Shown piece after piece: positions 20,225-56,063 of a DNA stretch of 64,000 bases. The DNA is from Nereocystis luetkeana (taxonomy: Eukaryota; Sar; Phaeophyceae; Laminariales; Laminariaceae). Each line of letters begins with the position of its first letter. Positions within the stretch are counted from its first letter, which is position 1. The notes under the pieces are model-generated. The model worked only from the letters and a program-made list of their open reading frames with translations, did no database searches and was not told where the DNA came from. The stretch spans positions 12,023,938 to 12,087,937 of the forward strand of contig JARUPZ010000008.1 in NCBI GenBank assembly GCA_031213475.1, in the 5' to 3' direction. A program made the position numbers and the translations under genes.

Positions 20225-20266
20225 GCTATTATGGCCGTTAGTATACTACGTTTATTAATTTCAACA

Positions 20267-20967: not shown

Positions 20968-21127
20968 GCCTATGGAAGGCACGCTGCATTTCTTCGAATG
21001 CAGATTTCATACCGGGTACCCGGTACATTAAAAAAATATCTGGTAAAAGTGTTTTCGATGTTTTTTTGTACCAGGTATTCATCAATTTTACTTTCCAGCA
21101 GCTGAAGTCGTACGTAGGTGTAGGAGG

Positions 21128-35320: not shown

Positions 35321-35437
35321 TTACGAGGGACCATAGTAAATAGGACCAAATATTGTTTAAAAAAAAAGAAAAGGTAATTACATACCTGGTAGGTTTTTGT
35401 GTGTACCATAGGTCCTATTTACTATGGTCCCCCGTGA
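35321..35437. mobile_element. MITE-A copy carrying a CCTGG insertion
   Basis: TTACGAGGGACCATAGTAAA ... ACTATGGTCCCCCGTGA. At 35383-35391 it reads CATACCTGGTAGGTTTTT, where other copies read ATATAGGTTTTT. The difference is CCTGG plus a duplicated TA. It adjoins the 5' end of LINE-B. Confidence 0.8.
35383..35391. repeat. TACCTGGTA micro-insertion in MITE-A
   Basis: Alignment to MITE-A copies at 9463, 37536 and 38189 places an extra CCTGG+TA here at a TA dinucleotide. The rest of the interior matches apart from an A-rich expansion just upstream. Confidence 0.75.
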
Positions 35438-35439
35438 CA

Positions 35440-37150
35440 GGGGAGGATACCGCCCAGTGACCCTTCTAACCTATGGGCGATATATTCTGCAGTGTAGATG
35501 TGCTCAATAAGAGGCTGCGTAGAACCGTCTCGTCGGAAGCAAAACGACCGCACAAACAGTACACACCGCGGTAGGCAAGGACACCGTACTATGAACTGCG
35601 GTACACCTTCCCATGTCTGATGCAAGCCAAAGGCCATTGTACTAGATTATACTTCCAATGTCCATGTGGTATACGTGTATACCCTCAGTATCACACTATT
35701 TAATAGGGTGATAAGATAACACACCCCCTCGGACGATTTTGAAAGCTGAGTTTCTCGACAACGGCGGGGGGGGGGGGCGTACTGAGTTCGACGAGCGATG
35801 CGTCTGCCCAACCTCTTCGACGAAATCTTTCCCAAGCCACCAGTATCGTTTTGTGTGCCCCTTAAGGCATGCTTTGGAGGAAACCGAGACCGAAATTCGT
35901 CACCCAGTGTGATAGTGTCATACGGTACACCCGAAATACTCTATTGACTGTTACATGAATTTATGCCAAAGCAGATACTGTTGAAGTAAGTGTATTACGT
36001 ACCAGTGAATAGTACAGGATCTCTAGTTCTTCGAGCCCTTGGCAATCGGCAACGCGGTGAAGATCAAGCTTTGTCTCGGGCGAGCTATTGGCACCAGCGC
36101 ACCAGCATGATGACAAGGCTGGCGATGAAGCATGGTGGCATTGATGGAGCTATGGCATGCTGGCGGGGTAGAGCGGACAAACAGGTGATGCCACGAACGT
36201 TAACAGAACGTTCTTGTCATACCTGGTGCAGCGGTGCGGACATGAACGTCAACAGTTAGATACCTGGTATTGAATGGTCTGGCGGTTGGGTGTTTTTGTC
36301 TTTTCGCATGGAACCAGATGTAACCGCTACTCGTAGCGTGATACGTTTTGGTGTTTCTTTGTTTCGTGATTTGTGTTCATATGTATACCCAAACGACAAG
36401 CTGCACCCCCATCGTCAGCACGTGATGGTCCTCCTTCCTACGATATACCCAATGCAATCGATGCACATGTGGTATGGGAGGCACTAACGCCGCGCTTGGC
36501 CACAACCTCCTATAATCGCAACAGACAACAGTGACAGGCAGAGGGTTACCCGTCCTCACCGCCGATGCTCGGGCGACAATCAACAATCAACAATGGAAAA
36601 TCTCAGGCTGCATTCCTCTCATGCATAGCTATTTCGTGCCGGTGGCGTCAGATTACCGCCAAAATATAGCGTGTTTCCGCGTAGTTACGGCCTACATCAT
36701 ATTATGGGCAGCTTACGGGCAATTCCCGCAAAAACAGGGGACATTTAAGAAACGTCCGGACATTTAAGAAACGTCCCCCCTAGGACCGAAAGCCACACCC
36801 AATAGCGTTGTGAGCATTTTTGCGGGTTCAACACCCGAGCATTCTGCTTCGTGTTGTAGCGCTGCGGCACCAATTAATGTACGCCTCCGTCAGCAGCTCC
36901 AGGAGAGGTCTTCGCAGGTCTTGGGGGTTTCTAGGGCAGCCAGAGGGCAGCAACGGTGCTGGGGTTTCCTTTTCAAATGTATGGCTTTCGTTCATAGGGG
37001 ATATGTGGCGTCACGTAATTCCGACGGCCCACGGACCAAACAGATCCTTACGCACGGCTGACGCCGCTCGCCGCAAGCGCGTATTTACGTAATTCGACAT
37101 GAACGTATTGCGTGGTAGTTACTGCTACTGCAGTTTTTGCAATAGAGTAC
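35440..37150. other. No gene recognised
   Basis: Unique sequence with TACCTGGTA-type scars at about 36219 (TACCTGGTG) and 36261. A short direct repeat GGACATTTAAGAAACGTCC occurs at about 36740 and 36757. Open frames are short. Confidence 0.35.
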
Positions 37151-37156
37151 TTACAT

Positions 37157-37208
37157 ATATTTTGAGTGGTTCGTCCCCGCAACGGAACTGCAGTTCAAAA
37201 CGGGTTAA
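37157..37208. mobile_element. MITE-B right half
   Basis: GTGGTTCGTCCCCGCAACGG AACTGCAGTTCAAAACGGG-TTAA. The left arm is missing. MITE-A begins within 10 bases. Confidence 0.55.
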
Positions 37209-37212
37209 TATC

Positions 37213-37419
37213 AAGGGGGACCATAGTAAATAGGACCTATGATACACACAAACTATATATTTACCTATTTTTACTATTACGGGGGACCCTAGTTAATAGG
37301 ACCTATGGTATAGATAAAAAACTATATATTTAACCATTTTTACTAACATTATTTGGTCCTATTAACTATGGTCCCCCGTAATAACAAGATTTGGTCCTAT
37401 TTACTATGGCCCCCCGTGA
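37213..37419. mobile_element. MITE-A outer copy, interrupted by MITE-A
   Basis: The left part is AAGGGGGACCATAGTAAATA..CTATTTTTACTA, and the right part resumes at 37382 as TAACAAGATTTGGTCCTATT..CCCCCCGTGA. Joined, it gives the usual TTTTTACTAACAA-ATTTGG interior. The left terminus is mutated (AAGGGGG for TTACGGGGG). Confidence 0.85.
37277..37381. mobile_element. MITE-A nested copy 1
   Basis: TTACGGGGGACCCTAGTTAA ... TTAACTATGGTCCCCCGTAA, with TA on each side (37275-37276 and 37382-37383). The uninterrupted host reads CTAACAAG, so exactly one TA is duplicated. This fixes the target duplication as TA and the terminus as TTACGG..CCGTAA, the Tc1/mariner pattern. Confidence 0.92.
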
Positions 37420-37440
37420 TAGTACCAAGTATAGATTGAC

Positions 37441-37484
37441 TATTAATAGCAAAATTTGGTTCTATTTACTATGGCCCCCCGTAA
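37441..37484. mobile_element. MITE-A right half preceded by TATTAATA
   Basis: TATTAATA (37441-37448) abuts AAATTTGGTTCTATTTACTA TGGCCCCCCGTAA. The preceding word ATAGATTGAC recurs after the half copy at about 37492-37501, so a local duplication has occurred. Confidence 0.6.
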
Positions 37485-37535
37485 AACTACAGTATAGATT
37501 GACACGAAGTAAGCCTCAATCTTATCATTCTACTA

Positions 37536-37656
37536 TTACGGGGGACTTTTATTAGGGGGGGGCATAGTTAACAGGACCAAATATTGTTAGTAAAAATGGT
37601 TAAACATATAGGTTTTTATGCATACCATAGGCCCTATTAACTATGGTCCCCCGTAA
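37536..37656. mobile_element. MITE-A copy with duplicated left end
   Basis: TTACGGGGGACTTTTATTAG GGGGGGGCATAGTTAACAGG: the left terminal block appears nearly twice. The right end TTAACTATGGTCCCCCGTAA is intact. Flanks are CTA and TAG. Confidence 0.8.
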
Positions 37657-37658
37657 TA

Positions 37659-37755
37659 GTAAAAAGGACCAAATATTGCTAGTAAAAATAGCCAAATATA
37701 TAGGGTTTTATGGGTACCGTAGGTCCTACCAGGTGTTTAATATGGTCCCCCGTGA
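37659..37755. mobile_element. MITE-A copy without left end, carrying a CCAGG insertion
   Basis: It starts at AAAAAGGACCAAATATTGC directly after the previous copy and ends CCCCCGTGA. At 37727-37735 it reads GGTCCTACCAGGTGTTTA, where others read GGTCCTATTTA: CCAGG plus a TA (mutated to TG) has been added at the TA. Confidence 0.75.
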
Positions 37756-37759
37756 CAGT

Positions 37760-38147
37760 ATTGTTGTACAGAGGATGTACCACTCATGTGGACGGAACTA
37801 TAAGGATCTGAATGCAAGGGTCTTTGGTTCACAGTCACGAATAAATGATCACTATATTTTCGGCCAGATTTGTGTTGTTCTACAGATGCTCCCAGCAGTG
37901 GGAGCAGCAAGGTAACGCATTTTCGGGGGGAAACACAGCAGTAGTGGAGGTCCTTCGAGCACTGGCGGAATTTCGGCGTTCGATGCTGTTCATACTGCGA
38001 GCACTGACCTCTAAGTCCAGTATCTACTACTGCCTGTGCTTTTGAGGTATACGTGGTATCGGGATTCGATACTGCGAATACTGCCGGTACTCGCGGTATT
38101 TTGGGGTTCTGTATTGCGGATACTGCTGTGCTATAATACCAGGCATG
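37760..38147. other. No gene recognised
   Basis: Unique sequence between MITE-A clusters with TACTGCTGTG and TACCAGGCA words near 38121 and 38138. Confidence 0.35.
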
Positions 38148-38150
38148 TTA

Positions 38151-38361
38151 TTACGGGGGACCATAGTTAATAGGACCAAATATTGTTATTACGGGGGGCC
38201 ATAGTTAATAGGACCAAATATTGTTAGTAAAAATGGTCAAATATATAGGTTTTTATGTATACCATAGGTCCTGTTAACTATGGTCCCCCGTAATAGTAGA
38301 AATGCTCAACTATATAGGTTTTTATGTATCCCGCAGGTCCCATTAACTATGGCCCCCTGAA
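38151..38361. mobile_element. MITE-A outer copy, interrupted by MITE-A
   Basis: Left part TTACGGGGGACCATAGTTAA..AAATATTGTTA (to 38188). Right part resumes TAGTAGAAATGCTCAACTAT..GGCCCCCTGAA. Flanks are TA on both sides. Confidence 0.85.
38189..38293. mobile_element. MITE-A nested copy 2
   Basis: TTACGGGGGGCCATAGTTAA ... TTAACTATGGTCCCCCGTAA inserted at the TA of TTGTTAGTA, with TA duplicated (38187-38188 and 38294-38295). Independent confirmation of TA target duplication. Confidence 0.92.
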
Positions 38362-38521
38362 TAGTATACTACAGCAGTGTGCTGATAGTAGATAGAGGTG
38401 AGACCAGGTGAATCGGCCTGTCAGGAAAATATATATTTGAAATTAGCATGGGAGCATTTATGCAGTACTCACATTATATAAGCAAAAGATAACACCGCAT
38501 TACATTACCAGGTACCTGGTA

Positions 38522-38810
38522 TTTTTTTTATTTATTTTTTTTCTCATCCCCTTTATTATCTTCGCACATCTTCTTCTCTCTCTCCTTCCAACTCGTAACT
38601 CAGATCCGGGGTCACATAGCAGGCTCTTCTCCCCCCTTCCCGCTACGGTACGTGCCTTCATTTTTTATCGCGAGAAGATTTCAGCCTTTTCTTCCCTCGT
38701 CGACTCGCATCGAATTGTGCCTACTCACGCTGCAAGGCGCTCTCAACAATTGAATCCCTTTTTTTTTAATTATTATTATATTTTTTTTTTGCAAATAAAG
38801 TCAAAGTCCG
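38522..38810 (-). mobile_element. SINE-1 copy e, head missing
   Basis: Body and A tail as in copy a (T-rich at 38522-38541), but it ends at CAAATAAAGTCAAAGTCCG and lacks the whole tRNA-like head. It is therefore 5'-truncated. TACCAGGTACCTGGTA lies directly at the tail end (38505-38520). Confidence 0.8.
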
Positions 38811-39187
38811 GTATAGTTTATATATAGTAAAAGATGAGACTCCAGAGGGAGGAAAGATCCTGCACTCGTACATTGCCGAGTAGACCACTGCTGTGCTGTG
38901 CTGTGCTGTATATAGCAACACCTCGGCCGTTAGCACCTTAGCACTGCTCGTACTGCGAGTGCTCGCACCACCTCATCGGTGCACCGTTTCCATAATTCCA
39001 TCCACACCAGTTTATCCGCAGAATCTATACTGGCACGTATGGTACACAGATCCTTGCAGGCGAGATATTTGATATTTTCACGGTACTCAAAGGTACTGCT
39101 GCACTGACTTATCATGCCAGTAAGTGGAAGTGCTGTGCCACGAAGTCCAAACTATTATCGTACCCCTGCTGCACTCAAGCACACGTT

Positions 39188-39416
39188 CATAGATTGCGTA
39201 TGTCGTGCCTGTCGTATCTAGTATGATGACATGGCTTTGCATTGCCCACTGCAGTGCACACTGCACACGTGGCAACGTAGTATCTCTGTGGCGTAGCTTT
39301 GTGACCACATAACTTGTATCTCTTCTAGGATTGAAGAATCGGCACGGACACTGGTTGTGCTGGATGTCGACGGGTAGAAAGAACGGTTTAATGTGAAGAA
39401 CACACACACACACGCA
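39188..39416 (+). mobile_element. LINE-A 3' end, 5'-truncated copy
   Basis: CATAGATTGCGTATGTCGTG through GGTTTAATGTGAAGAAC and (AC)n. It matches 59151-59376 nearly base for base, so it is a recent LINE-A insertion of about 230 bp. Confidence 0.85.
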
Positions 39417-39569
39417 TGCACGAGGCTACTATACCCCGCGTACGATTTTTACGAATACCTGATTTTTGTGGGGTCATCCCCATATTATCCCCATCCCTCT
39501 GGGTATGCCAAGCGGGTCCGAAATTCCACTTTTCTGAGACCTGGTACTCGTGCCGCCATCTACCTTCTG

Positions 39570-39765
39570 TTAACCCTTTTAGAACCGCTGTCCCGTTTTG
39601 TCGACAGACAACTTATATTCGAAGTAGTTTGACGCCACAACGGGACTACTGTAGAGTCTTCACCCTTTTAGGACCGCAGTCTCGTTTTGGGGACAATTGA
39701 GGACAAACTGCTTGTAATTTGTATAGTATGTCCCCAAAACGGGACTGGAGTTCTAAAAGGGTTAA
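39570..39765. mobile_element. Two tandem MITE-B copies
   Basis: Copy 1 (39570-39660) has a mutated hairpin (TTTTGTCGACAGACAACTTA). Copy 2 (39659-39765) is better preserved, with GGACCGCAGTCTCGTTTTGG and CCCCAAAACGGGACTGGAGT, and ends GGG-TTAA. They share or abut at a single junction. Confidence 0.65.
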
Positions 39766-39989
39766 CTTAACGGCAGCCCTAAAACGGTTACGGTATAGAC
39801 TATAGAACTATAGACGCAGATGGGCAGAACAAAATCGTTTTTTCGTTTTTTCGCCAGCTATGGTTGATTTTGACGCCCTTACACAGAAGTATACTGGTAC
39901 CAGGTATGTATGAGGACATTTTATTCATCATTATTTATTACCTGGTATAACATTATAACAAATTCACAGATGCTTCCGCTTCTTCTTAC

Positions 39990-40166
39990 TGCTGTGCTTA
40001 CTGCATACCAGGTACCTGGTACGTGGCAACGTAGTATCTCTGTGGCGTAGCTTTGTGACCACAGAACTTGTAATCTCTTCTAGGATTGAAGAATCGGCGC
40101 GGACACGTAATGTGCTGGATGTCGACGGGTAGAAAGAACGGTTTAGTGTGAAAAACACACACACAT
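39990..40166 (+). mobile_element. LINE-A 3' end with double scar
   Basis: Truncated LINE-A tail ending GGTTTAGTGTGAAAAAC-(AC)n. At 40006-40021 it holds TACCAGGTACCTGGTA, where the paralogue at 52226-52262 (reverse strand) has only TA: CTTACTGCA-TA-CGTGGCAACG. Two CCWGG units have been added at one TA. Confidence 0.85.
40006..40021. repeat. Double micro-insertion TA-CCAGG-TA-CCTGG-TA
   Basis: The empty site is provided by the LINE-A tail at about 52240-52262, read on the minus strand. Flanks match on both sides (TTACTGCA and CGTGGCAACGTAG). This is the strongest single case for CCWGG units being inserted at TA. Confidence 0.85.
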
Positions 40167-41253
40167 TTTCGTCCCCAATAGTGGTACGTGAGGACTCTGA
40201 TTGGTGAAGAAACTAAGGGGGTGTAAGGTGCAAGGTGTAAGGTGTGACACACGAGGTGGCATGTGGCATGTGCAGTGTGGCATGTTGATGATTTCAATTG
40301 TACAGGTCGTAGGTTGATGTTGCCGAGGGCCGTTGGCAGACCATGCATTGGCAGGCCAATGGACGGACGCGCACCGCACGCGACGTGCGTTTGTTGCTGG
40401 CAGCTGCGCAAACGTTTTACAATCGCAGTGCGTCCCTATCGCTAGCTACTATAGCTGTTAATTGATACCAGGTGTTAGCTATAGGCCCTTCCCTGCTACC
40501 GGCTGAAATTGTGCTATACATGAACATATTATTATTTCCCTTGCCATCCGACAATAATGTGCAGCATGATCTTCAACATTGATCACTCACAACTTTCCGG
40601 AAAGAAGAAAACCATATTCATGTTATGATATACCCGGTACCCTCTGGTATGCGTGGACATGTGGACGGGAAAAAGGTTTACGATTTTTTCCTTGAGAGGC
40701 GTCTTCATTTTCTGTCATGTTTCACAGATTATTACGACAGACGAGTTTCTTACTTGCTCCGGCCCTTCCGACCTCGCTACGTACGAGTATCTTTCATCGG
40801 ATGTAAGGTTGTTTTTCCTTTTCGTTTTCTCAAACAGCTGTTGTATTAATAGTAATAGTAATCGTGTTCGGTCAGCATTCTTCTTGGCATGGGTTTTGGT
40901 TGGTGCCGTGGAGTAAAATATTTTCTCGGTCTGCTGTCGGCTCCGTATTGTGGGGTTTTCTCCACACCAAGAATCCTTTGGGAGGTAGGATCCGTACATG
41001 CGTAGGTCACTTTGAAGGGGTTGCTCGGTCCGATACCTCAATAGAGACCTACCTCCCATCGGACTCATTGCCATACCTCTTGTACAATGCGGTCGATTCT
41101 TCGTGCTCTCCTTTTTTTTTCTCTCTCTCCTTCTCTTCGAGATTGTCATCACTCTCGTTGCTGGAATGAAAAGTTAGCCGGCCAGTTCGAACGGGTTAAG
41201 GTTGATTTTCTCCGCTCGGTTTTACTCGCTACGTACCACCGGTATGCTTGGCT

Positions 41254-41350
41254 TTAACCATTTTAGCACCGCAGTCCCACATGTGGAGACAAATCACTCA
41301 AATTATGAGTAGTTTGTCCCCGAAACGGGACTGGGGTCCTAAAAGGGTTA
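41254..41350. mobile_element. MITE-B copy
   Basis: TTAA-CCATTTTAGCACCGCAGTC ... GGACTGGGGTCCTAAAAGGG-TTA. The inner left arm reads CCACATGTGGAGACAAATCA, similar to the change seen at 20294, so a subfamily with CCCA(C/T)ATGTG exists. Confidence 0.7.
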
Positions 41351-41402
41351 CAAGACGAGGAAGGAGTGTTGCCGGTGTGTTGACAGCAGTTGGCAACCTT
41401 AC

Positions 41403-41580
41403 ACGCCGTCCTTTCTACCCGTGGACATCCAACACAACCAGTGTCCGTGGTGATTCTTCAACCCTAGAGAGATACAAGTGAAAAACACACACCCACAAGC
41501 TCTGCGGTCACAAAACTACGCTGTACGACACGGAGATACTATTAATATGTACCTGGTATACCTGGTATGCAGTAAGCAGG
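41403..41580 (-). mobile_element. LINE-A 3' end, rearranged, with chained scars
   Basis: TTTCTACCCGTGGACATCCA through GAGATACTA, then TATTAATA (41540-41547) and two TACCTGGTA (41550-41567), then TGCAGTAAGCAG. The paralogue at 52230 reads GAGATACTACGTTGCCACGTATGCAGTAAACA without them. A short AAAAACACACACCC insertion lies inside. Confidence 0.75.
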
Positions 41581-41899
41581 TCTTGAGGAAAGTGTAATAT
41601 GCCGAAGCAACTATTAATAATAATATGAATACCATGCAGGTACTCTTTTTGTCCCCAACAACTGCAACGCACGGCAGGTAATAATCTGAGAAATCGTCCC
41701 AAGCACTCTCTCCAGCGACCAGCGATGAACAGAAAGCAGCCTAAGCCGTGAACGAAATCGACCATAAACAAGCCGGCAAAAAATCATACGGAGTACACCG
41801 TCAACCGTCAACTAGTCAACTACGCATGGTACAGCTGTGCGCCGAAGCGCAGGACGGCTAGGATTGACCGGCGGTGGGCAGGTCAACGGTGGCTGGTAG

Positions 41900-42490
41900 T
41901 GCGGTGGAAATCGGGGTTTGCGATCACGGTTTGATCGCGATTTCTGGTGATCGCGATCTCAAAATGTTGACCCTCGGTCGCGATTAAATATCGTGGTATT
42001 AAATAGTAGTAGTAAATCGCGATATACGATCACGATAGTTCAATACAGCCTCCGATACACCTCTCTCTACATAACAGACGACCAGAAGGACTGGTGGCTG
42101 CTACAGCAGCAGGTGGCTGTCTCAGTTCCTGCGTGCACCACACCATCGATTGTATCTTGGTCTTGGGGCATTGGTGCGCACATTCTGCCTGGTGGTTGTG
42201 TGGAGTCATGGATGCACTGTATAGATGAAACACGAGTCTGATCGTGTGGGATCGTGGCTGGGCGTGGGTCTCGGAAGCCCAAATCATCACCGGTTTCGTT
42301 GCTTTCGTCGTTTATTAATAGTGCATTCCTGTGCGTCCTATATTCAGCCTACATGTGCATTTGAAGCGAGCAACGGCTAGGGCTTCAAAGTTGCACTGCG
42401 CCGCTGCGCCGGGTGCTGAGAAATTATTGAAATGCACCGCTTTGTGCCCGAATGTCGCGATTAAACGCGATACACAGGCGATACTTTTTT
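41900..42490 (+). mobile_element. hAT-like non-autonomous element, copy 1 (degraded ends)
   Basis: AGTGCGGTGGAAATCGGGG at the left and TCGCGATTAAACGCGATACA at the right bound a unit that shares, in opposite orientation, CTCAGTTCCTG-CGTGCACCAC, GGTGCGCACATT, GCGCCGCTGCGCCGGGTGCT and AATGCACCGCTTTGTGCCC with 54607-55403. Many GATCGCGATT words lie near both ends. No transposase frame. Confidence 0.5.
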
Positions 42491-42890
42491 CATCGACGAC
42501 TATACATATAATTGAGATCCGAAAACAAAAAGTCGATTGATCGTATCGACTACCAGGTATATTGCACCTTTCTTGGCGCGATTCACATCACTGGGTACTG
42601 GTGTCTGATGTACGCATACCTGGTACCAGTACCAAATAGAGGATACCGGTACTGCTGTGGCTGTTGCTTGTTCTTTTCGTACCCAGTACGTGTGATAACG
42701 GTGCATTCATTTGTTGCTTTACTTGATTTTTCGTTTTTCAATAACTCACGCAAATCACACAAAATTGACGGCAGGCATGAATATCCTGCTGCACGAGTTC
42801 CCAACGACAGCTATGCTACAGCAGTAGCATTATTGACAGTAGTATCTAAAATTTTGAGTAGTCTCCGCAGCTCATGTGCTGCATCAAAGA

Positions 42891-43229
42891 TTTTTTTTTT
42901 TTTTTTTTTTTCATCCCATTCATTATCTTCGCACATCTTCTTCTCTCTCCTTCCAACTCGTATCTCAGATCCGGGGTCACATAGCAGGCTCTTCTCCCCC
43001 CTTCCCGCTACGGTACGTGCCTTCATTTTTTATCGCGAGAAGATTTCAGCCTTTTCTTCCCTTGTCGACTCGCATCGAATTGTGCCTACCCACGCTGCAA
43101 GGCGCTCTCAACAATTGAATCCTTTTTTATTTTTGCAAATAAAGTCAAAGTCCGACCCACCTGGGGCTCGAACCCAGGACTCAAACAAGTAGAATTCGAG
43201 GTTAACCACTTGAACCACCGGGGCGACCG
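42891..43229 (-). mobile_element. SINE-1 copy f (full length)
   Basis: A tail at 42891-42911 (T run), complete body, intact B box (GGGTTCGAGCCC on the minus strand) and head ending at CGACC. Only scattered substitutions from copy a. Confidence 0.85.
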
Positions 43230-43396
43230 GCTGGAACACAGAGAACATCAATTAATTATGCTATTATATTTAAGATTTCCTTTCGGAGTCGTGTTTATAA
43301 TGACTGGGGCGACGCAAGAAACAAAAAGGCCCAAATCAACCTGACTGAAAACTTATGTGTCAATGTCACAATACGTTTTATATCTTTAAAGTGTAA

Positions 43397-43900: not shown

Positions 43901-43981
43901 CTAAGGGCCCATCTTAACGAATAACCCTTTTCATGATAATCGAATAGGAAGATAAAAATGATTTGATTCGAATAGAATTTC

Positions 43982-45650
43982 GTGAAAAATATGCCTTTGG
44001 GTCACATCGAGGAATATAGCGTACCTGGTATATTATTTTTAGATCGAATAACGCACAAGCGTCAACGAACACCCGAGGGCAACCAACGAGGCGAGCGACG
44101 GCCCACGTCCTCCCCGGGGCGCCGCGGGCAGCAGCCGGTTGTTTCTGCCGGCACCGCTGAAGAGGCTATTGCTCTTGGGATGTCTTGGGTGGCTGGCGCA
44201 GCCCCGAAGCCCCACGCAGGCAGCAGCGACGGGGATACAGCGATACACATATATTTTCTGAGCGAAGTCGTGACCTGGTCGGTGCTCGTGTGGTTCGCGA
44301 GGCAGAGAGGGATGAAAAACTGGGTTTGCGACGGCCTTGCAATTTTTTTAGGAGCCTGGTCTACTCTGTGCTAGGGACCGTCGGACCTCGCGCTGCGGCT
44401 GCTCCGGTGGCCCTGTTTGTCGGGAATGGTGGATCTCACCTGTGAAGCAGTCGACGACACGACTCAAATGCGCGTGGCTTGCTTCGGTTTCAGGAACATG
44501 CCACGTCGAGTTGGACAAACTCCCCCATTTGAATAACACGAATAGCAAAAGAAGGCCCAAAAGACAAGAGACTACTTGTCGAATTCGTTTCTTTCGTTTT
44601 ATTTCGAATCAAACATCAAAATGCCTGATGGGTGCTTCACTTTTCGACCAATCAGATGCAAATCAAATAAGACGAAAAAAAGATCGGCGGAGTATCATAA
44701 AAAAAAAAAAACTTGTTAAGGTGGGCCGTAATTATCAGATAATTACGTTGTATTTATATACCAGGTCGGTTATGTTGAGGTTGTTAGGCTGGGTCTTATG
44801 CATTTCTTTTTTGAGTGATTGAAAAAGGCAGGAAGTCGGATTTTCCACCGGCAAAGAGCCACACCAGATCGGTGCGCCATGTGCCGTCTTATCGTGATTT
44901 TGGCTTTATTTCATGGGAGAACTAAAAGAATAGAACACAACCGACATCTTGAACTCCACGTGGACCACGACACAAACGAGAGTCGCTCACGCCGGGTTGG
45001 GCGATCAACCTTCACTACCAGCTCCTCGAAGGAAGCAGCGGAATGTGTAACCCCCTGGGGAGCTGCGGAAGGGGTTTGCTAGTCGCTGGACCAGCAAGGA
45101 GCTCTCGCCCTCGCGAAGCATGAGCTGCTTGCGGCTGTCGTAGTCAGAAAAAACCGTTAGATTGTTTTGATACTGCTACTGTGGTCTCGTCCTATTCGTT
45201 TCCAAAGTTGTTTTGCCTAGAGCAGCTGCAGTTGGGCGGCCGCAAGGGACACGATGGTAGCCAAGGTACTGATGCCCTCCCTCTCCGTGGTGGCCGATGC
45301 ACAAGTGTTGGAGCCCAGCTGTGTACAAGCGTATCCAAGCATGTAGCGTCGTGACCCGTCATGAACCCAGTCTATAACCTAAACAAAATTGTATAATGCC
45401 ACCGAGGTCTTGTGCAAAAGCGAATTTTATCACTTTCAGAGTTGACATGATCAGAAAAGTCTGCCAAAAAAAAACATTTCATCGAATTTCAGGAGTGATA
45501 GAATCTCGGAGGAACATTTTTTCCACCAAATAGGCCCCATAGGACGTGATTTTGATAACATCTGATCAGATATGGGGCTAGCTACCCCGAAGCCTCCGTA
45601 AACACCTAATTAACAGTCATATAATCACCTAATTTGTTTTTGCAGAAGAT
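43982..45650. other. No confident gene
   Basis: A plus-strand frame at 43982-44374 (130 codons, with SAGTAEEAIALGMSWVAGAA) is open, but the opposite strand is too, and nothing is recognised. TACCTGGTA occurs at about 44024. The remainder is unique AT-rich sequence. Confidence 0.3.
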
Positions 45651-45754
45651 CCGGCCTTAGCACCCAAAAATGCGTGGATACGTCTCCTATTTGTATCTTA
45701 TCACATCATACAAGAGAATTATCTATCCACCAACTGCCGCCGCTCGTTTGGCTG

Positions 45755-45930
45755 TTGCCTACGTACGGACACTGGGTGTGCTGGATGTTGACGGGTATGT
45801 GTGTTCTTCACATTTAAACTGTTTTTTCTACCCGTCGATGTCCAGCACAACCAAGTGTCCCGTGCATCCTTCAATCTTGAAGAGATACATGCTCTGCTGT
45901 GGTCACAAAACTACGTACGAGTACGACACA
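45755..45930 (-). mobile_element. LINE-A 3' end, diverged
   Basis: TTCTTCACATTTAAACTGTT, CTACCCGTCGATGTCCAGCA, GTCCCGTGCATCCTTCAATC and TGTGGTCACAAAACTACG match the LINE-A terminus in reverse. The first 45 bases (GACACTGGGTGTGCTGGATG) are a second, oppositely oriented piece of the same terminus. Confidence 0.6.
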
Positions 45931-46119
45931 GACGGTACTTTTTGTTATTCACCAAGCAGAGCAGACAATGTCATACCTCGTTATCGTACTGGATACGACA
46001 GGCACGAGCTACGTACTCATTCATTCAACGAAAGGGCGAAAATTCAAAAGAAACAAAGATACAACATCGGAAACACGGAGCCGATTCAAAGGTTGCCTGC
46101 ATCAGTGACTGCATCTCAG

Positions 46120-46353
46120 TTTTTTTTTTTTTTTTGCTCATCCCATTTATTATCTTCGCCCATCTTCTTCTCTCTCTCCTTCCAACTCGTAACTCAGATC
46201 CGGGGTCACATAGCAGGCTCTTCTCCCCCCTTCCTGCTACGGTACGTGCCTTCATTTTTATCGCGAGAAGATTTCAGCCTCTTATTCCCTCGTCGGCTCG
46301 CATCGAATTGTGCCTACCCACGCTGCAAGGCGCTCTCAACAATTTAATCCTTT
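46120..46353 (-). mobile_element. SINE-1 copy g, head missing
   Basis: A tail (T run 46120-46135) and body to CTCAACAATTTAATCCTTTTG. The tRNA-like head is absent. Confidence 0.8.
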
Positions 46354-46529
46354 TGAGTCCATCTATATATATACCTGATATGCATATATATATATATATG
46401 TTGTTCGGTTGGTTGTTTTTTGGGTCGTTTGTGTGTCAGTTCTGACTTCTCAACTTTTCCTCTGCCTGCTGCGTCGATCCTGTGAGCAGCTGCAGAGCTG
46501 GTCCTCCCTGATGACGCTCTTTATTGTGT

Positions 46530-46640
46530 TGTCTGTTTTTGTCACATTGAACCCGTTCTTTCTCCCCGCCGACATCCAGCATACACCAAACCCAGACAGC
46601 AGCAGTGTCCGCGTTGCGATTCTTCATCTATGATAGCAAA
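46530..46640 (-). mobile_element. LINE-A 3' end, diverged fragment
   Basis: TGTCACATTGAACCCGTTCT, CCGACATCCAGCATACACCA and GTGTCCGCGTTGCGATTCTT. Old copy, no tail. Confidence 0.5.
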
Positions 46641-46705
46641 AGATGAACCACGACGCGGACATGGTGAGATAGTGATCGCCCTCGAAGTACTACTCGTGCT
46701 ACTGC

Positions 46706-46920
46706 TGTGTGTGTGTGTGTGTGTGTGTGTGTGTTCTTCACATTAAACCGTTCTTTCTACCCGTCGACATCCAGCACAACCAGTGTCCGTGCCGATTCTT
46801 CCATCCTAGAAGAGATACAAGTTCTGTGGTCACAAAGCTACGCCACAGAGATACTACGTTGCCACGTGTGCAGTGTGAACTGCAGTGGGCAATGCAAAGC
46901 CATGCTGTCTGCACATACGA
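46706..46920 (-). mobile_element. LINE-A 3' end with long (TG)n tail
   Basis: (TG)n at 46706-46733, TTCTTCACATTAAACCGTTC, then a close match to 59376-59200 reversed, ending near GCAAAGCCATG. 5'-truncated recent copy. Confidence 0.85.
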
Positions 46921-47083
46921 TACGTATCTGGTATCTGATATTGTTGGGTCATGGACCTCGAATTCAGAGTGTGGTCATACTTCACCAGGTATAAAATTAC
47001 AAAAAAACAACTTTGAGATCGAGACTTCGTCGAAATTCATTTTTGCAGCTGCGTGATACTTCGATTGCGCATATTACGTGATG

Positions 47084-47128
47084 TCGACGGGTAGAAAGAA
47101 CGGTTTAATGTGAAGAACACACACTACG
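47084..47128 (+). mobile_element. LINE-A 3' end, minimal 45-bp fragment
   Basis: GATGTCGACGGGTAGAAAG AACGGTTTAATGTGAAGAACACACAC only. An extreme 5' truncation showing that the last 30-40 bases are the fixed end. Confidence 0.75.
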
Positions 47129-47665
47129 TACAGCAGTACGTACCTGGTGCGGGTCTCGAATGGCCATGTGCAGGAAACCATGTGCAGGAAACACAATCCG
47201 TATATAAGGAAGACATAATCTGGAGCTGCAGACTCCAAGGAGTGGGTGTGCCTATATTTGGGAAACAACATTTTTTTTATTTTATAAAATTATGAAATAC
47301 GTCAGCTGTGAGTTCGACTGATTACATAGTTTGATACTCAACGTAAATCTGAGGTTGCGCGCAGCTTGCATGTCACGAGTGTGGATTTTTTTCCGGTGTG
47401 CTATGTCATACGAGGTACCTGATACCTGGCACCTCTTAATACTACTGCTGTGTATATATTTGGATACCATCATCACCGCTGAGATCGAGAAACATTAATA
47501 ATAAGGGTTGAGTCTATATTTTAGAGATAATAAAATTAAATGAGGCGTGCGAGGACCAAATTCCACTCACGGGTGGAGACATGTAATTATTCATTACCTG
47601 GTACCTGGTATTAATTAAACTATTGCTTTGAATTCAGGTGCATTACAGCAGTATTGATATTAATA

Positions 47666-47770
47666 TTACGGGGGACCATAGTTAACAGGACCTATGGTAC
47701 ACATAAAAACCTACATGTTTGACAATTTTTACCAACAATATTTGGTCCTGTTAACTATGGCCTCCCGTAA
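47666..47770. mobile_element. MITE-A copy next to a TATTAATA scar
   Basis: TTACGGGGGACCATAGTTAA ... TTAACTATGGCCTCCCGTAA. The left flank is TATTAATA (47658-47665), whose last TA serves as the duplicated target, so this copy appears to have inserted into an older scar. Confidence 0.85.
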
Positions 47771-48020
47771 TAGTAGCTTTTCCGGAAAAAAGCGGACACG
47801 ATATATAATATCCGGCATGTATATCTTGAAAAACATACGTACGAATACTCTCTATAATAATAGCCCTGTGAAATCGAGAAATATGAATTGTCGTCAGTTC
47901 ATTTACGAAAGATACTCAAACAACTATCAAATATTAATACGAGTAGGTAAAGGAGTCTAGTCGCGAATAAAATGCACATGGCACGAACTGCTGTACCATA
48001 TGTATCGGGGAGAGGGGCAC

Positions 48021-48062
48021 GCATGTATGTGACCCCGCAGATCTGAGTTACGATTTGGAGGT
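48021..48062 (+). repeat. SINE-1 short fragment
   Basis: TATGTGACCCCGCAGATCTG AGTTACGATTTGGAGG matches the SINE-1 body on the plus strand with small changes. Confidence 0.45.
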
Positions 48063-48519
48063 TTAGAAGAGCAGGCCTCATCAGGACGAAGATTAGAAAT
48101 GGAATGCCAAAATCAACATGAAGAAAACCATAAAATTCTCGCCTGCACTCCTGTTATTTGTATTATTAACAATATTGGTTTCGTGGTTCCGTTCCGTCAC
48201 TTTTTTCTGACGAACCACGAGAAAATGAAAATAAAATACGTACGTACTTACTTATCGGCTATTAATAGTGTACCTCATTGGTTTCTGTTGTGGTCGGTTC
48301 GGTTTGGTTTTTCGGCTCACGACCCACAGCTCCGACCGTCGACCAACGGAAATCGAACCACAGAGCTCCCCACGAATCAGCGGCGAACCCTCTGACCAGT
48401 TATTTGTTACCCTACGGGATGCAGCAGCCTGCAACGGCAAGGTCGTGCAGTGCACAGGTATATTTCATCTCCTGGTATATACCTGGTACCTAGTACTGAA
48501 ATAGTGACTGCCCATATTT

Positions 48520-48690
48520 TCCACACCTCTCATCATCGATCCCTTTCTCGGAGTTGGCGGCGGGTCGACTTCGTTGACGGTTGATTGTTGTTTGAGGCTT
48601 GTACGGTGCGCGCGTCCAAAAGGTGCAAAAGCTTCGAGTACTGGTTGCTGTTGCTGTTGCTGCTGCTTCTGCCGCAAACCTTTCACAGCG
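48520..48690 (-). CDS. Candidate exon with short Q tract
   Basis: Minus frame: a run of Q (48645-48668), then PVLEAFAPFGRAHRTSLKQQ and STVNEVDPPPTPRKGSMMRG, a convincing protein-like sequence, then VENMG. It carries no in-frame ATG before the Q tract, so it would be internal. An acceptor-like CCGCTGTGAAAG precedes it, and donor-like AGAG/GTGTGG follows. The DNA just upstream (48700-49200) is GC-rich and also open on the minus strand. Unknown product. Confidence 0.35.
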
Positions 48691-49209
48691 GGAGAAATCT
48701 AGGCAGGAAGTCTAGAGGCACGAGGCAGCCAAGCGAGCGAGGCAGCCAGCCGTAGCCGGCGGTTATTCCGGGCGGCGTTGAAGCGACCTGTACCTCTCGG
48801 CCTTCTCGCGCTATCAAGTCAGCGCTTAAAACGCGGGTCCATACACAACACAGAAGTACGACCCGGCCGAAGAAGCAAAGAGGGCCCCCGGCTGGTTCGA
48901 AGTTCTGGTGCCCCCTCGTTCCCCAAAGGCCGAAGGCTCAACCGCCGCCACGCCGTCATCATCCCATCTATCTTCCCGTCAAACCGAGAGCACTCGATTT
49001 TCGACTCTTTAAAACACCAACGACGAGACCAGCACCAGCACCACCACAAAGAAGAGCGTTCTTCTGTATACGTAGTCCGTGGTTAAAGGGAGGCTCATGG
49101 TGCTCCCGAGCCGACAGGAACGGTCATTGGGCGGGAGGGGGCGGCGGCCGTTTCCCGGCGCGTGGTTGAACGTTTCGCCGACGGCGAAAGGAGGAGACAA
49201 GAATGTGAG

Positions 49210-50235
49210 AGAGCGAGAGTTTTTTTCGCATGCACGATAAAGCTAAAGCGATTGTATCTCTATTATTTGTGATAAATTTACCACCCGCGGTTTATATGCT
49301 CCAATAATAGGTACATGTGGTAAATTGATCCTCCACTTATTCCAAGTAGTTTATCCACGATTTTTACGCGAGACAGGGACTGAAACAATGATAACTTTGG
49401 TGCTGTCAACCGCGTACGAGCTACAGAGCAGCGTCAGAGCGCCCAGGACCACGGTTTGGTGAATCATGTTGCGTCCATGCGGTACGACTCCTTGCGTTCT
49501 AACTACGTACAGCGTAACGGCGGCATTATCATGCTGAAGGAGGACACCAATCCGTATCGTCCCTCAATCACCCAGTATTTAAGTGGCCGTTGAAGTAATC
49601 GTAATTTTTCATCCTCAATTTCCTCCTCTCAACTCAAGTCCGAAGACGGAACGGGTATACCTGGTAGTGGGAGAAGAAGGGGTGTGTTGCCTTGTTCTGC
49701 CTTCTCCGGGTCGTGGCTAATTAGAGGTGTCGGCCAAGTGCAGTAATACAACAAGGCCCAGGAATAGAAGTGCAGTATTTATAAGGCCCAGGGTTGGAGT
49801 GGATGTAGGAATGGCAGGAGGTCTAGGTCCGTGTTTTCAAAAGGAGCGTGCGCCTTCTAACCTGGTCCTATCTTGACCTGCCACACCTGGTAATCTGTAC
49901 GTACCAGTTACTTGATTTATCTCTATTTTATCGTGTATCTGGTGGGCATCACAAATATTATACCAGGTACATATACCACAGGTACCAGGCAAAATGTGTG
50001 TTGTTCACCTTGACCTTTTTTTTTTGTAGAGAATGATTTAGGACATCCAGCACACCCAGTGCAGTGCCCACACCCAGTGCAGTGCCCATACCGATTGTTC
50101 ATCTTAGTGATAGTAACCTAAACTATTATAGCTACAAAAGCAACTTTGCTGTCATCAATCGACCAGGAGCAGCGTCGTGCGCCCCCAGCGCCCGTGGCGC
50201 ATGTCTCCTTGTGTTGTACGTATCGTTGTAAGGCA
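49210..50235. other. No confident feature
   Basis: Unique sequence. TACCTGGTA at about 49660, TACCAGGTA at about 49961. About 50040-50105 resembles the LINE-A terminus (ACATCCAGCACACCCAGTG), with a small tandem CACACCCAGTGCAGTGCC. Confidence 0.35.
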
Positions 50236-50239
50236 GGCA

Positions 50240-50568
50240 CTAACCTCGAATTCTACTTGCTTGTTTGAGTCCTGGGTTCGAGCCCCAGGTGGGTCGGACT
50301 TTGACTTTATTTGCAAAAATACAAAAAGGATTCAATTGTTGAGAGCGCCTTGCAGCGGCGTGGGTAGGCACAATTCTATGCGAGTCGACGAGGGAAGAAA
50401 AGGCTGAAATCTTCTCGCGATAAAAATGAAGGCACGTACCGTAGCGGGAAGGGGGGAGAAGAGCCTGCTATGTGACCCCGGATCTGAGTTACGAGTTGGA
50501 AGGAGAGAGAGAACAAGATGTGCGAAGATAAAGAATGGGATGAGAAGAAAGAAAAGAAAAGAAAAAAG
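50240..50568 (+). mobile_element. SINE-1 copy h, A box missing
   Basis: It starts at TAACCTCGAATTCTACTTGC, so the first ~25 bases of the head including the A box are lost, while the B box GGGTTCGAGCCC remains. Tail AGAAGAAAGAAAAGAAAAG. TATTAATA follows at 50576-50583. Confidence 0.8.
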
Positions 50569-50660
50569 GCACTACTATTAATATTAACAAGAGCTTACTA
50601 CAGACAGTTGCCGTTGTCGTTGCTGTAGTGGTTGCTTGTTGTCGTAAATCTTACCCCCTT

Positions 50661-50757
50661 CAACCCCTTTACGACTGCAACCCGGTTTTCGGGACATATT
50701 ATTATTTTTTTTTTCCCCCTCAAAACGGGACTGCAGTTCTAAACTCGAGAGGGTTTT
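50661..50757. mobile_element. MITE-B copy, eroded
   Basis: CAACCCCTTTACGACTGCAA at the left; AAAACGGGACTGCAGTTCTA AACTCGAGAGGG at the right. The centre is replaced by a T run. Confidence 0.6.
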
Positions 50758-50762
50758 GATGG

Positions 50763-50859
50763 TTAACCCCTTTAGAACCGCAGTCCCGTTTTGGGGACAA
50801 ACCAATCAAATTTCAAGTAGTTTGTCCCCAAAACGGGACTGCGGTGCTAAAGGGTTTAA
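50763..50859. mobile_element. MITE-B copy, near-perfect hairpin
   Basis: TTAA-CCCCTTTAGAACCGCAGTC ... GACTGCGGTGCTAAAGGG-TTTAA, loop TCAAATTTCA, as at 21128. Five bases from the preceding copy. Confidence 0.85.
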
Positions 50860-50936
50860 TACCTGGTTGTTGACAGCACTCTGCCCCGAAATATAAAGAA
50901 TTGTTTTACTTCATGTTAGAGTTAAAACGGTCCTTG

Positions 50937-51040
50937 TGTTTCGGGACAGAGTTTTGTAGCTGCAGGCTCATTTCGGGGGCAAACGACTCGAATTTCTAGT
51001 GGTTTGTCCCCAAAACGGGACTGCGGTTCTTGAAGGGTGA
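50937..51040. mobile_element. MITE-B copy, left arm eroded
   Basis: GGTTTGTCCCCAAAACGGGA CTGCGGTTCTTGAAGGG on the right; the left arm is GCTCATTTCGGGGGCAAACG. Confidence 0.6.
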
Positions 51041-51617
51041 AAATTATACATGGAGATCCAAGCTCTGCGGTCACACATACATGTGTATGACTAATCTTAA
51101 AAATACATTGATACGAGTGACGGTACAACACAGCAGTAGCAGAGAGATGATATACCGGGATCCGTGTATACTACTACTGTGATACAGACAGGTAGCTGAC
51201 CTTACATACAGCAGTAGCAGCATACCAGGTATAACAGCAACTCGAGCGAGTGGATTATTTTCTTGTAAGTTTCATCGGCGACAGATGGAACAGCAACAGT
51301 AGCACAGCAGGGCAGTTGTTGTGCGTGTATGTATCAGATATGCGATGAATAAAGTGGACGAAAGCGAAGAAGCCGGCGTGCGGCAGCAATAACTCGTATC
51401 AGGTAACTCGTAAGTCGTCGGGCATCGTTGCAGAGTTTCGCGTCAAAAGTTATCGACAATTCCTGTATCAGAATAAGCCCGTTTGACGCCATCTTGCCTC
51501 TTTTGTCATGCCTTTGGTCTCGTCGCCCGGTGGGGGTAATCAGCAACCAGCAACTCCATACGTGAGCCTATTGTAGATACCAGTAGATACAAAAGATTAC
51601 TTGCCATAAGCCATGGA

Positions 51618-51893
51618 TATCGGTGTCCCCGGTGGCGTGGTAGGAGGTCCGCGTGCCTACTAAGATCAAATTATTGGGTTCGAGTCTCACCGAGTGCATA
51701 CGACTCGTAGGGACTTTTCGACATTCCCTTGCATAAAAACAATATAGCGGAAAGCGCGAGAGCTTGAGTAAGCAACACTCCACGAAAATCTACGAAAAGC
51801 GAGAATGCTGAACCCTATGCGGGATAAAAATGAAGGGACGACACCTATTAGTACCTGTGACCGCGGCTTGTCCAGTAGATCGCTGAGGGTAAA
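51618..51893 (+). mobile_element. SINE-2 reference copy (tRNA-derived)
   Basis: The head CGGTGTCCCCGGTGGCGTGG-TAGGAGG contains an A-box-like TGGCGTGGTAGG. GGGTTCGAGTCTC is a B box 38 bases on, followed by ACCGAGTGCATACG. The body includes TTGCATAAAAACAATATAGC and GAGTAAGCAACACTCC, and it ends near GATCGCTGAGGGT. About 275 bp, no A tail. Head and body are unlike SINE-1 except for a shared GGATAAAAATGAAGG word. Confidence 0.65.
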
Positions 51894-51907
51894 AGTCTCT
51901 TGTAAGT

Positions 51908-52012
51908 GATCTCTTTTGCACTGCAGTCACTTTTTGGGGGGAAACTGCCTATTGTTCGAGCGGTTTGTCTTCAAAACGGGACTGCAAGCCTAATCTGTGA
52001 AAGGGATAAGCT
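51908..52012. mobile_element. MITE-B copy, eroded
   Basis: TTTTGCACTGCAGTCACTTT and GGTTTGTCTTCAAAACGGGA CTGCAAGCCTAA. Terminal TTAA lost. Confidence 0.55.
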
Positions 52013-52108
52013 GGAAAGTAAACAGGGTGAAAAAAATAAAATAAAAACCGACCCCGGGCAGAAGTCGTCGAAAGTCGCTAAATATTTCAATATAGTTATT
52101 ATTAATAG

Positions 52109-52440
52109 TGTGTTCACATTAAACCGTTTTTTCTACCCGTCGACATCCGGCACAACCAGTGTCCGTGCCGATTCTACAATCCTAGAACTGAGAAGAAATA
52201 CAAGTTCTGTGGTCACAAAGCTACGCCACAGAGATACTACGTTGCCACGTATGCAGTAAACACAGCAGTGGGCAATGCAATGCCATGCATGTCATCATAC
52301 TTAGGCAGGGACGACATACACATTCTATGAAATAGAGAAACGAAAGCAAACAATCAAAGAGAAAACAAAAACAAAGGAGACAAACCGAAAGAAAAGAAGA
52401 AAAAAAATGAAAGCAATAGTACAGCAGAGTAGCTGTCTGC
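52109..52440 (-). mobile_element. LINE-A 3' end with part of the untranslated region
   Basis: GTGTTCACATTAAACCGTTT through GCAATGCCATGCATGTCATC, then CATTCTATGAAATAGAGAAACG and an A-rich stretch that is the reverse complement of 59060-59155. It supplies the empty TA site for the scars at 40006 and 41550. A TATTAATA scar replaces the AC tail (52100-52107). Confidence 0.8.
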
Positions 52441-52588
52441 TTGTCCTTCGGAGAGTGAATGAACTGCTACAATGAAATATGAAGTTAGGTTTCGTACATC
52501 CTATGTACCCAGCGGATAAATGCCAACTGCGTACTGCTGTATTCGTATTACGCAAGGCACAGCTGCACATCAGGACTAATTACTAATA

Positions 52589-52701
52589 TTTCGGGGGACC
52601 ATAGTTAGTAGGACCTGTGTTATACATGAAAACCTATATATTTAAGCTTTTCTACTAACAATATATGGTCCTACCAGGGTATTAACTATGGTCCCCCGTA
52701 A
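52589..52701. mobile_element. MITE-A copy carrying a CCAGGG insertion
   Basis: TTTCGGGGGACCATAGTTAG ... TTAACTATGGTCCCCCGTAA. At 52672-52681 it reads GGTCCTACCAGGGTATTAAC, where others read GGTCCTATTAAC: CCAGGG plus TA added at the TA. Confidence 0.8.
52672..52681. repeat. TACCAGGGTA micro-insertion in MITE-A
   Basis: Exact addition of 6 bp plus a duplicated TA relative to copies at 37277, 37536 and 38189. Flanks on both sides match. Confidence 0.8.
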
Positions 52702-56046: not shown

Positions 56047-56063
56047 TCCGTAATACGTCTGGT

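What the first reader, a model, noticed from the sequence alone, without database searches (positions are those of the whole stretch)
35383..52681. TACC(A/T)GGTA is a short insertion at TA, shown by empty paralogous sites
Seen: the 9-mer TACCWGGTA occurs roughly 45 times in 64 kb on either strand by my count, where chance gives about 0.5. In four independent repeat contexts it is an addition to a TA present in sister copies: MITE-A at 35383 (CCTGG), 37727 (CCAGG) and 52672 (CCAGGG), and a LINE-A tail at 40006, where TACCAGGTACCTGGTA replaces the lone TA of the copy at about 52250. Each case fits TA to TA-CCWGG-TA. Known: Sleeping Beauty-type excision leaves TAC(A/T)GTA scars, where the central A/T reflects repair of a mismatched overhang. 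Inference: these are excision scars of an unseen TA-targeting transposon, or products of an unknown micro-insertion process.
Basis: partly seen in the sequence, partly recalled or inferred. Interest (0 to 1): 0.93.

Follow-up and report, generated by a model that had tools for sequence, protein, structure and literature searches.

The report
Vast archive of transposon excision scars
A 465-million-base eukaryotic genome carries about 182,000 copies of one nine-letter word that is most likely the repair scar left each time a so far unseen jumping gene cut itself out, so the genome would keep a countable record of past jumps.

Summary
TACCWGGTA occurs 41 times in the window (0.36 expected) and 182,395 times in the 465 Mb genome, against 1,744 for the reversed word. 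It is an addition to a pre-existing TA. At one TA of the MITE-A repeat, 24,005 copies are empty and 527 carry TA-N5-TA; 487 of these are CCWGG. In 267 kb, sister copies of CCWGG and CCAGGG words were empty in 12 cases, filled in 0, unclear in 12; control TA-N5-TA words gave 17, 162, 82. Both flanks share a palindromic target preference. Partial scars CCA, CCAG and CCAGGG sit in that context; CCT and CCTG do not. One junction type carries CCAGG at least 13 times, CCTGG once. All this points to excision scars of a TA-targeting cut-and-paste transposon ending TA-CCAGG(G), with a dominant 5-nt footprint; one paper gives 2-4 bp for Tc1/mariner. TATTAATA matches the ends and target of resident MITE-A and serves as an internal control. 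The parent was not found.

The parts
35383..35391 (+). TACCTGGTA scar inside MITE-A copy 35321-35435
   Evidence: sister copies fit the joined flanks without gap at the junction
37727..37735 (+). altered scar TACCAGGTG in MITE-A copy 37656-37758
   Evidence: joined flanks fit sisters gap-free
52672..52681 (+). 6-nt scar TACCAGGGTA in MITE-A copy 52583-52706
   Evidence: 8 other aligned copies lack the addition, 6 with TA and 2 with CA
40006..40021 (+). double scar TACCAGGTACCTGGTA in a LINE-A tail
   Evidence: lone TA in the copy at 52191-52269
47595..47610 (+). double scar
5741..5749 (+). scar word
12308..12316 (+). scar word
12333..12341 (+). scar word
14619..14627 (+). scar word
19285..19293 (+). 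scar word
20464..20472 (+). scar word
21069..21077 (+). scar word
22161..22169 (+). scar word
23146..23154 (+). scar word
26150..26158 (+). scar word
26699..26707 (+). scar word
27985..27993 (+). scar word
28898..28906 (+). scar word
29138..29146 (+). scar word
29552..29560 (+). scar word
36261..36269 (+). scar word
39898..39906 (+). scar word
39939..39947 (+). scar word
42551..42559 (+). scar word
42617..42625 (+). scar word
44022..44030 (+). scar word
48480..48488 (+). scar word
49658..49666 (+). scar word
49961..49969 (+). scar word
51223..51231 (+). scar word
52819..52835 (+). 5-nt scar joined to a 6-nt scar, TACCAGGTACCAGGGTA
52872..52880 (+). scar word
53392..53400 (+). scar word
59806..59814 (+). 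scar word
61688..61696 (+). scar word
61839..61847 (+). scar word
61859..61867 (+). scar word
2061..2070 (-). 6-nt scar CCAGGG
27006..27015 (-). 6-nt scar CCAGGG
31608..31617 (+). 6-nt scar CCAGGG
54488..54497 (+). 6-nt scar CCAGGG
55794..55803 (+). 6-nt scar CCAGGG

Best explanation
TACCWGGTA is the germline excision scar of a TA-targeting cut-and-paste DNA transposon whose ends read TA-CCAGG(G). Inferred steps: the transposase inserts the element at a TA lying in a palindromic AT-rich context and duplicates the TA. On exit it cuts one strand at the tip and the other 5 (sometimes 6) nt inside, leaving CCAGG 3' overhangs on both flanks. End joining anneals the overhangs through CC/GG around one central A:A mismatch, which is settled as A or T. 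This gives TA-CCWGG-TA, a net gain of 7 bp. Shorter and longer products (CCA, CCAG, CCAGGG) and microhomology joins to a flanking GG are minor outcomes. Shown directly: the addition at TA, its specificity, the palindromic target, the ladder of partial scars along one end sequence, and the excess of one-change words. Inferred: the transposase, the stagger and the overhang polarity. A low-copy element that jumps conservatively would leave many scars and few residents.
For: Genome-wide 182,395 against 1,744 for the reversed word. One MITE-A TA: 24,005 empty, 527 TA-N5-TA, of which 487 CCWGG, and 77 TA-N6-TA. Sister-copy test in 267 kb: CCWGG blocks 9 empty, 0 filled, 11 unclear of 20 testable (116 examined); CCAGGG 3, 0, 1 of 4 (13 examined); control TA-N5-TA 17, 162, 82 of 261 (1,040 examined); 12:0 against 17:162 gives Fisher p 1.5e-11. 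Target preference T-W-A at -8 to -6 and few T at -1, on left and right flanks separately; trained on 37 window blocks and tested on 79 elsewhere, z 10.5. Ladder: target z for CCA 3.8, CCAG 4.5, CCAGGG 3.8, against CCT -0.9, CCTG -0.1. 6-nt ends: CCAGGG 7 and 0 for the seven other endings in the window; 13 against 2 in 267 kb. Junction ATAGTTAATACCAGGACC at least 13 against 1 for CCTGGACC. One-change words in excess, two-change words not. Internal control: TATTAATA flanks match MITE-A insertion flanks.
Against: No parent element or matching transposase was found. Of 51 TACCAGG half sites in 339 kb, three pairs share 15 or more of the next 24 letters: two (24 and 22) lie inside other repeats and one (15) is weak, so no terminal repeat emerges. 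At the MITE-A TA none of the 37 printed sites is a clear resident; one proved to be a hAT-like repeat and one was unclear; that pattern could not see a resident whose sixth base is T, and the other side of the site gave 9 hits whose letters were withheld. DDE_3 gave 0 matches. The 20 DDE_1 loci read, with about 1.5 kb of flank each, show no CCAGG ends. A dominant 5-nt footprint lies outside the 2-4 bp that PMC7913693 gives for Tc1/mariner. In the 267 kb test 11 of 20 blocks were unclear, and at least two of the nine empty calls are weak (L029 1844 in AT-rich repeats; L031 9581, whose sister has no TA). Of 4 testable one-change words in the window 2 were filled. TACCTGTA is itself enriched (18 against 7.1), though not in target context; TACGTA (z 3.2) and TACCGGTA (z 2.6) also score in the target context, so that score is not exclusive to the ladder. 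The CCAGGACC asymmetry assumes that CCAGG and CCTGG scars are equally common at that site in that orientation, which was not counted.
Confidence: 0.85

Rival explanations
1. A micro-insertion process without any transposon: an enzyme or repair pathway adds the 7-bp unit CCWGGTA directly at TA, so the word is itself the mobile unit or product.
For: No clear resident parent among 37 printed sites at a TA with 487 scars and no terminal repeat seen in 339 kb.
Against: The palindromic target signature, the partial-scar ladder along CCAGGG in target context and the CCAGGACC junction are what broken transposon ends would give. The same genome has a second scar-like word, TATTAATA, whose likely parent MITE-A is resident.
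Confidence: 0.09
2. Functional palindromic sites (protein binding or methylation target) spread or kept by selection.
For: Near-palindrome with CCWGG, a known methylase target in other organisms (recalled).
Against: Words that could be tested lie inside repeat copies as additions. One-change derivatives are about as common as intact words (49 observed, 12.7 expected, beside 41 intact), as expected of neutral decay.
Confidence: 0.02
3. Heptamer microsatellite expansion or slippage.
For: Some double units occur (6 blocks of 16 bp and 1 of 18 bp of 116).
Against: 109 of 116 blocks are single units. At the MITE-A TA, 24,005 copies have no unit at all and 487 have exactly one CCWGG between two TAs.
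Confidence: 0.02
4. Assembly or library artefact.
For: Very high count of one word.
Against: The word carries substitutions like old DNA, and it occurs in an independent record, a contig filed under a bacterial MAG, that shares repeats with the window, once at the same MITE-A TA.
Confidence: 0.01

Closest known systems
Sleeping Beauty / Tc1-mariner excision footprints
   Same: TA target, TA duplicated, 3' overhangs of the donor flanks joined by NHEJ leaving the overhang letters between two TAs (PMC7827188, passages read); AT-rich palindromic target preference (PMC7913693, passages read).
   Different: Dominant footprint is 5 nt with a 3-6 nt ladder; SB leaves three nt (PMC7827188) and PMC7913693 states 2-4 bp for Tc1/mariner. 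No matching transposase was found.
Minos footprints (recalled, not read)
   Same: Longer overhang giving TA-4nt-TA with unmatched central bases.
   Different: 4 nt, different letters, no relation shown.
Stowaway MITE excision in grasses (PMC1925063, search listing and start of abstract only)
   Same: Natural insertions and excisions of a MITE followed through presence and absence at sites.
   Different: There the element is known; here about 182,000 intact scars and no resident found.
MITE-A of this genome and its TATTAATA word
   Same: TA target; TATTAATA flanks (-1 C 94 of 176, -2 A 103 of 176) match MITE-A end flanks (-1 C 30 of 55, -2 A 38 of 55).
   Different: Different end letters (TT/AA), different target context, and its likely parent is resident.

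Membership tests
Excision footprint of a TA-targeting DNA transposon | addition between a duplicated TA at a site empty in sister copies | tested here: met
Excision footprint of a TA-targeting DNA transposon | inserted letters equal the ends of a known element | tested here: inconclusive
   no terminal repeat with CCAGG ends seen in 339 kb nor among 37 printed sites at the MITE-A TA; end sequence only predicted
Excision footprint of a TA-targeting DNA transposon | repair variants consistent with an overhang of one polarity | tested here: met
   CCA, CCAG, CCAGGG but not CCT, CCTG in target context; CCAGGACC at least 13, CCTGGACC 1
Tc1/mariner superfamily | TA target and TA duplication | tested here: met
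   net gain of CCWGG+TA at a lone TA
Tc1/mariner superfamily | footprint of 2-4 nt (as stated in PMC7913693) | tested here: not met
   the dominant scar-like word of this family has 5 nt; at one TA 527 of length 5 and 77 of length 6; lengths 2-4 at that TA were not counted
Tc1/mariner superfamily | DDE/D transposase with matching inverted ends | tested here: inconclusive
   PF13358 0 matches; PF03184 28 matches, 20 loci read with about 1.5 kb of flank, none with CCAGG ends, L047, L050 and L053 with CAGTACCGGCCCGC-like or CCGGCCCGC-like ends; other families not searched
PIF/Harbinger | 3-bp TWA duplication | tested here: not met
   5-nt insertion plus 2-bp TA at the MITE-A site
hAT | 8-bp duplication, CAGGG-type ends | tested here: not met
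   the scars duplicate only TA; the hAT-like repeat met at C22 has ends CAGGG with the preceding TAC not conserved (its own duplication was not read)
piggyBac | TTAA target, precise excision | tested here: not met
   target is TA and letters are left

The most novel reading that the evidence does not exclude
The 7-bp unit is not a scar of any large element but the direct product of a TA-specific insertion process: a minimal mobile addition spread about 182,000 times in intact form, with its own palindromic target rule and no parent.
Probability: 0.09. Interest if true: 0.96.

Novelty: new variant of a known kind. Interest (0 to 1): 0.82.

Why it matters
As far as I know (recalled), excision footprints are mostly described one by one, from reporter assays or single loci. 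Here one family has left about 182,000 intact scars in one genome (1 per 2.5 kb, 0.7% of the estimated TAs), while residents are too rare to have been seen. If the scar reading holds, copy counts can badly understate how active a cut-and-paste element has been, and scars offer a direct count of past jumps with a clock (their decay), the germline repair outcomes (mismatch settlement, ladder, microhomology joins) and a target profile. The 5-nt footprint would also extend the stagger range given for Tc1/mariner in PMC7913693.

Tried and rejected
Viral-contig scans: TACCWGGTACCWGGTA gave 9 stretches, which I take as chance or unrelated: 8 of 9 hold only the searched double, and L002 has one more beside similar local letters. 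The MITE-A end, the F2 end and the RT protein gave no locus in viral contigs. Rfam (gathering thresholds) and tRNA scans of the window were empty. Pfam on 14 frames gave reverse transcriptase in two (one below the cut-off) and a DUF4641 match below cut-off.

Inverted-end search in the window for TA-CCWGG elements: no convincing pair. Candidate parent at C22:6709706 (CCAGGGCTTTTCGCGGGTCAGGTC): rejected. It has 789 ends within 2 mismatches, but among the printed matches the bases before CAGGG vary (TTC, TAT, TAG, TCC, AAC besides TAC), and some listed ends pair about 900-950 bp apart, so I take it as a hAT-like repeat that happened to land after TAC.

TACAGCAGTA (13 in the window) was considered as another scar word: 0 empty, 5 filled, 1 unclear of 6 testable (32 examined), so it is not supported; 4 of the 5 filled cases lie close together in L030. 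TACCGTA: 0 empty, 9 filled of 9 testable (22 examined), not an insertion. The scan of prokaryote contigs with a MITE-A end found one contig from a bacterial MAG (L010) that proved to be from a relative of the window's organism. Paper searches (open-licence PMC only, terms as given there; mostly titles and abstract starts seen) showed no paper about this word or such scars; two searches returned no paper.
Full report
What was checked. The word TACCWGGTA is in the window 41 times; 100 dinucleotide shuffles give 0.36 on average and never more than 2. Among the TA-X-TA words ranked it is the most extreme. Not every sister keeps the TA: at 52672, 6 of 8 others have TA and 2 have CA; at 40006 one LINE-A copy has the lone TA and three have CA. 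A further case lies at 41550-41567. Of 4 testable one-change words in the window only 37727 was empty, 2 were filled and 1 unclear.

Genome-wide. The window lies in a 465,085,209-base assembly. The word occurs there 182,395 times against 1,744 for the same letters read backwards, a 105-fold excess. The pattern is its own reverse complement, so forward and reverse counts are the same places. Using the window's TA density, 0.7% of TAs would carry an intact word (26.1 million TAs estimated).

It is an addition at TA. The cleanest test is one TA in the MITE-A repeat, ATAGTTAATA|GGACC: 24,005 exact empty sites, 527 sites with TA-N5-TA, of which 487 (92%) are CCWGG (random 5-mers would give 0.2%), and 77 sites with 6 nt, at least 15 of which are CCAGGG by matching places. 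More broadly, in 267.5 kb of this genome (window, 20 stretches of 10 kb at round coordinates, and two 3-kb stretches that came because they hold the word), 116 blocks of the word were examined and 20 could be compared with a sister repeat. In 9 the best sister fits the joined flanks, in 0 it holds the word, and 11 are unclear. The 6-nt words gave 3, 0 and 1 of 4 (13 examined). Control TA-N5-TA words gave 17 empty, 162 filled and 82 unclear of 261 testable (1,040 examined). Pooling the first two, 12:0 against 17:162 gives p = 1.5e-11. At least two of the nine empty calls are weak (L029 1844 in AT-rich repeats; L031 9581, whose sister has no TA); the MITE-A counts do not depend on them.

The target is palindromic. 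The flanks prefer T, A/T, A at -8, -7, -6 and avoid T at -1, on the left and on the right side taken separately. A matrix trained on the 37 window blocks scores the 79 other blocks 10.5 standard errors above all TAs. A two-sided target rule is the mark of a symmetric recombinase complex (established knowledge; PMC7827188, passages read, discusses target bending). The scar itself puts a TA 7 bases from each new TA, which may help explain the double scars (7 of 116 blocks).

The letters point to one end sequence, CCAGG(G). The 6-nt words end only in CCAGGG in the window (7; 0 for the seven alternatives), and in 267 kb the counts are 13 for CCAGGG and 2 for all others. Shorter words CCA (z 3.8) and CCAG (z 4.5) share the target context, whereas CCT (z -0.9) and CCTG (z -0.1) do not. 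Against this, TACCTGTA is itself enriched without the context (18 against 7.1), and TACGTA (z 3.2) and TACCGGTA (z 2.6) also score. At the MITE-A TA, the 37 printed sites that read CCAGG followed by A, C or G divide into 17 CCAGGGTAGG, 13 CCAGGACC and 7 others. CCAGGACC is what arises if a CCAGG 3' end joins by its GG to the GG of the flank. Its CCTGG counterpart occurs once, although finished scars settle as A or T. So the junction is more likely a primary product of a CCAGG overhang than later slippage. The caveat is that the A:T balance of finished scars at this one site was not counted; in 267 kb it is 51:72 on the + strand.

Decay. Words with one change are in excess (49 observed, 12.7 expected, beside 41 intact, in the window), and words with two changes are not (123 observed, 134.7 expected). 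This gives roughly 9% change per site in the window and 7% in 267 kb, as for neutral relics. By inference, with (1-d)^9 intact, the original number of events would be some 340,000-430,000.

Internal control. TATTAATA (27 in the window; 85 in 267 kb) has flanks AC...GT (-1 C 94 of 176, -2 A 103 of 176, microsatellite contexts skipped) like the insertion sites of MITE-A itself (-1 C 30 of 55, -2 A 38 of 55; all TAs 20% and 29%). Its inner letters TT/AA are the outermost two letters of MITE-A. Sister tests gave 9 empty, 7 filled, 6 unclear of 22 testable, against 34, 372, 145 of 551 for control TA-N4-TA (p 3.5e-6). Six of the 7 filled ones lie in AT-rich repeat stretches (L029, L036), and 2 of the 9 empty ones lie in an L036 microsatellite. 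So this genome has a TA element with visible copies whose scar-like words are abundant, which supports reading TACCWGGTA the same way.

What is missing. The parent was not found. Of 51 TACCAGG half sites in 339 kb that are not scars, three pairs share 15 or more of the next 24 letters: two lie inside other repeats and one is weak. At the MITE-A TA no printed site is a clear resident; the one that looked so is a hAT-like repeat, and one site (C29) stayed unclear. That pattern cannot see a resident whose sixth base is T, and the opposite side of the site gave 9 hits whose letters were withheld. DDE_3 has no match, and the 20 DDE_1 loci read show no CCAGG ends within about 1.5 kb. Residents thus appear far fewer than scars, which is expected if a low-copy element jumps conservatively for a long time, but it is also what the micro-insertion reading predicts.

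Organism. A contig in a MAG labelled Flavimaricola (JALZWD010000061.1, L010) shares several repeat families, MITE-A among them, with the window and has 3 of the words in the 8 kb held, one at the same MITE-A TA as in the window. I take it as eukaryotic contamination from a relative.

Literature. Passages of PMC7827188 (SB leaves three-nucleotide 3' overhangs; NHEJ footprints equal the overhangs), of PMC7913693 (Tc1/mariner footprints 2-4 bp) and of PMC12477816 (Ectocarpus: Mariner-Tc1 and Harbinger diverse, most Mariner-Tc1 copies non-autonomous; the word footprint does not occur) were read by term search. Other papers were seen only as search listings and abstract starts. Searches showed no paper about this word or such a scar archive, within an open-licence library and the terms used.

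Verdict. Most likely it is a genome-wide archive of excision scars from an unseen TA transposon with a 5-nt footprint.

Noticed in passing
window, 27 places of TATTAATA (for example 10913, 25559, 37441): TATTAATA in AC...GT context looks like the excision scar of MITE-A (ends TA-TTACGGGGGACC), whose copies are resident.
   Followed up: partly
L010 (JALZWD010000061.1): A contig filed under a bacterial MAG (Flavimaricola) looks eukaryotic and shares repeats with the window; the MAG seems contaminated.
   Followed up: partly
window 7381-7490, 12421-12512, 20266-20365, 21128-21224, 28004-28099, 50763-50859 and others: A MITE family with ends like TTAACCC...GGGTTAA, piggyBac-like by recall.
   Followed up: no
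window, 13 places of TACAGCAGTA or TACTGCTGTA: Strongly enriched TA-CAGCAG-TA word (13 observed, 0.21 expected); sister tests did not show it to be an insertion. Unexplained.
   Followed up: partly
window 13121-14364 and 15023-16261: A 1.24 kb near-tandem duplication, 98% identical.
   Followed up: no
G000, for example C6:339478 and C6:340408: A hAT-like repeat of about 900-950 bp with ends CAGGGCTTTTCGCGGG, 789 ends within 2 mismatches.
   Followed up: no
window 56043-58487: Long open reverse transcriptase frame of 814 aa stop to stop.
   Followed up: no
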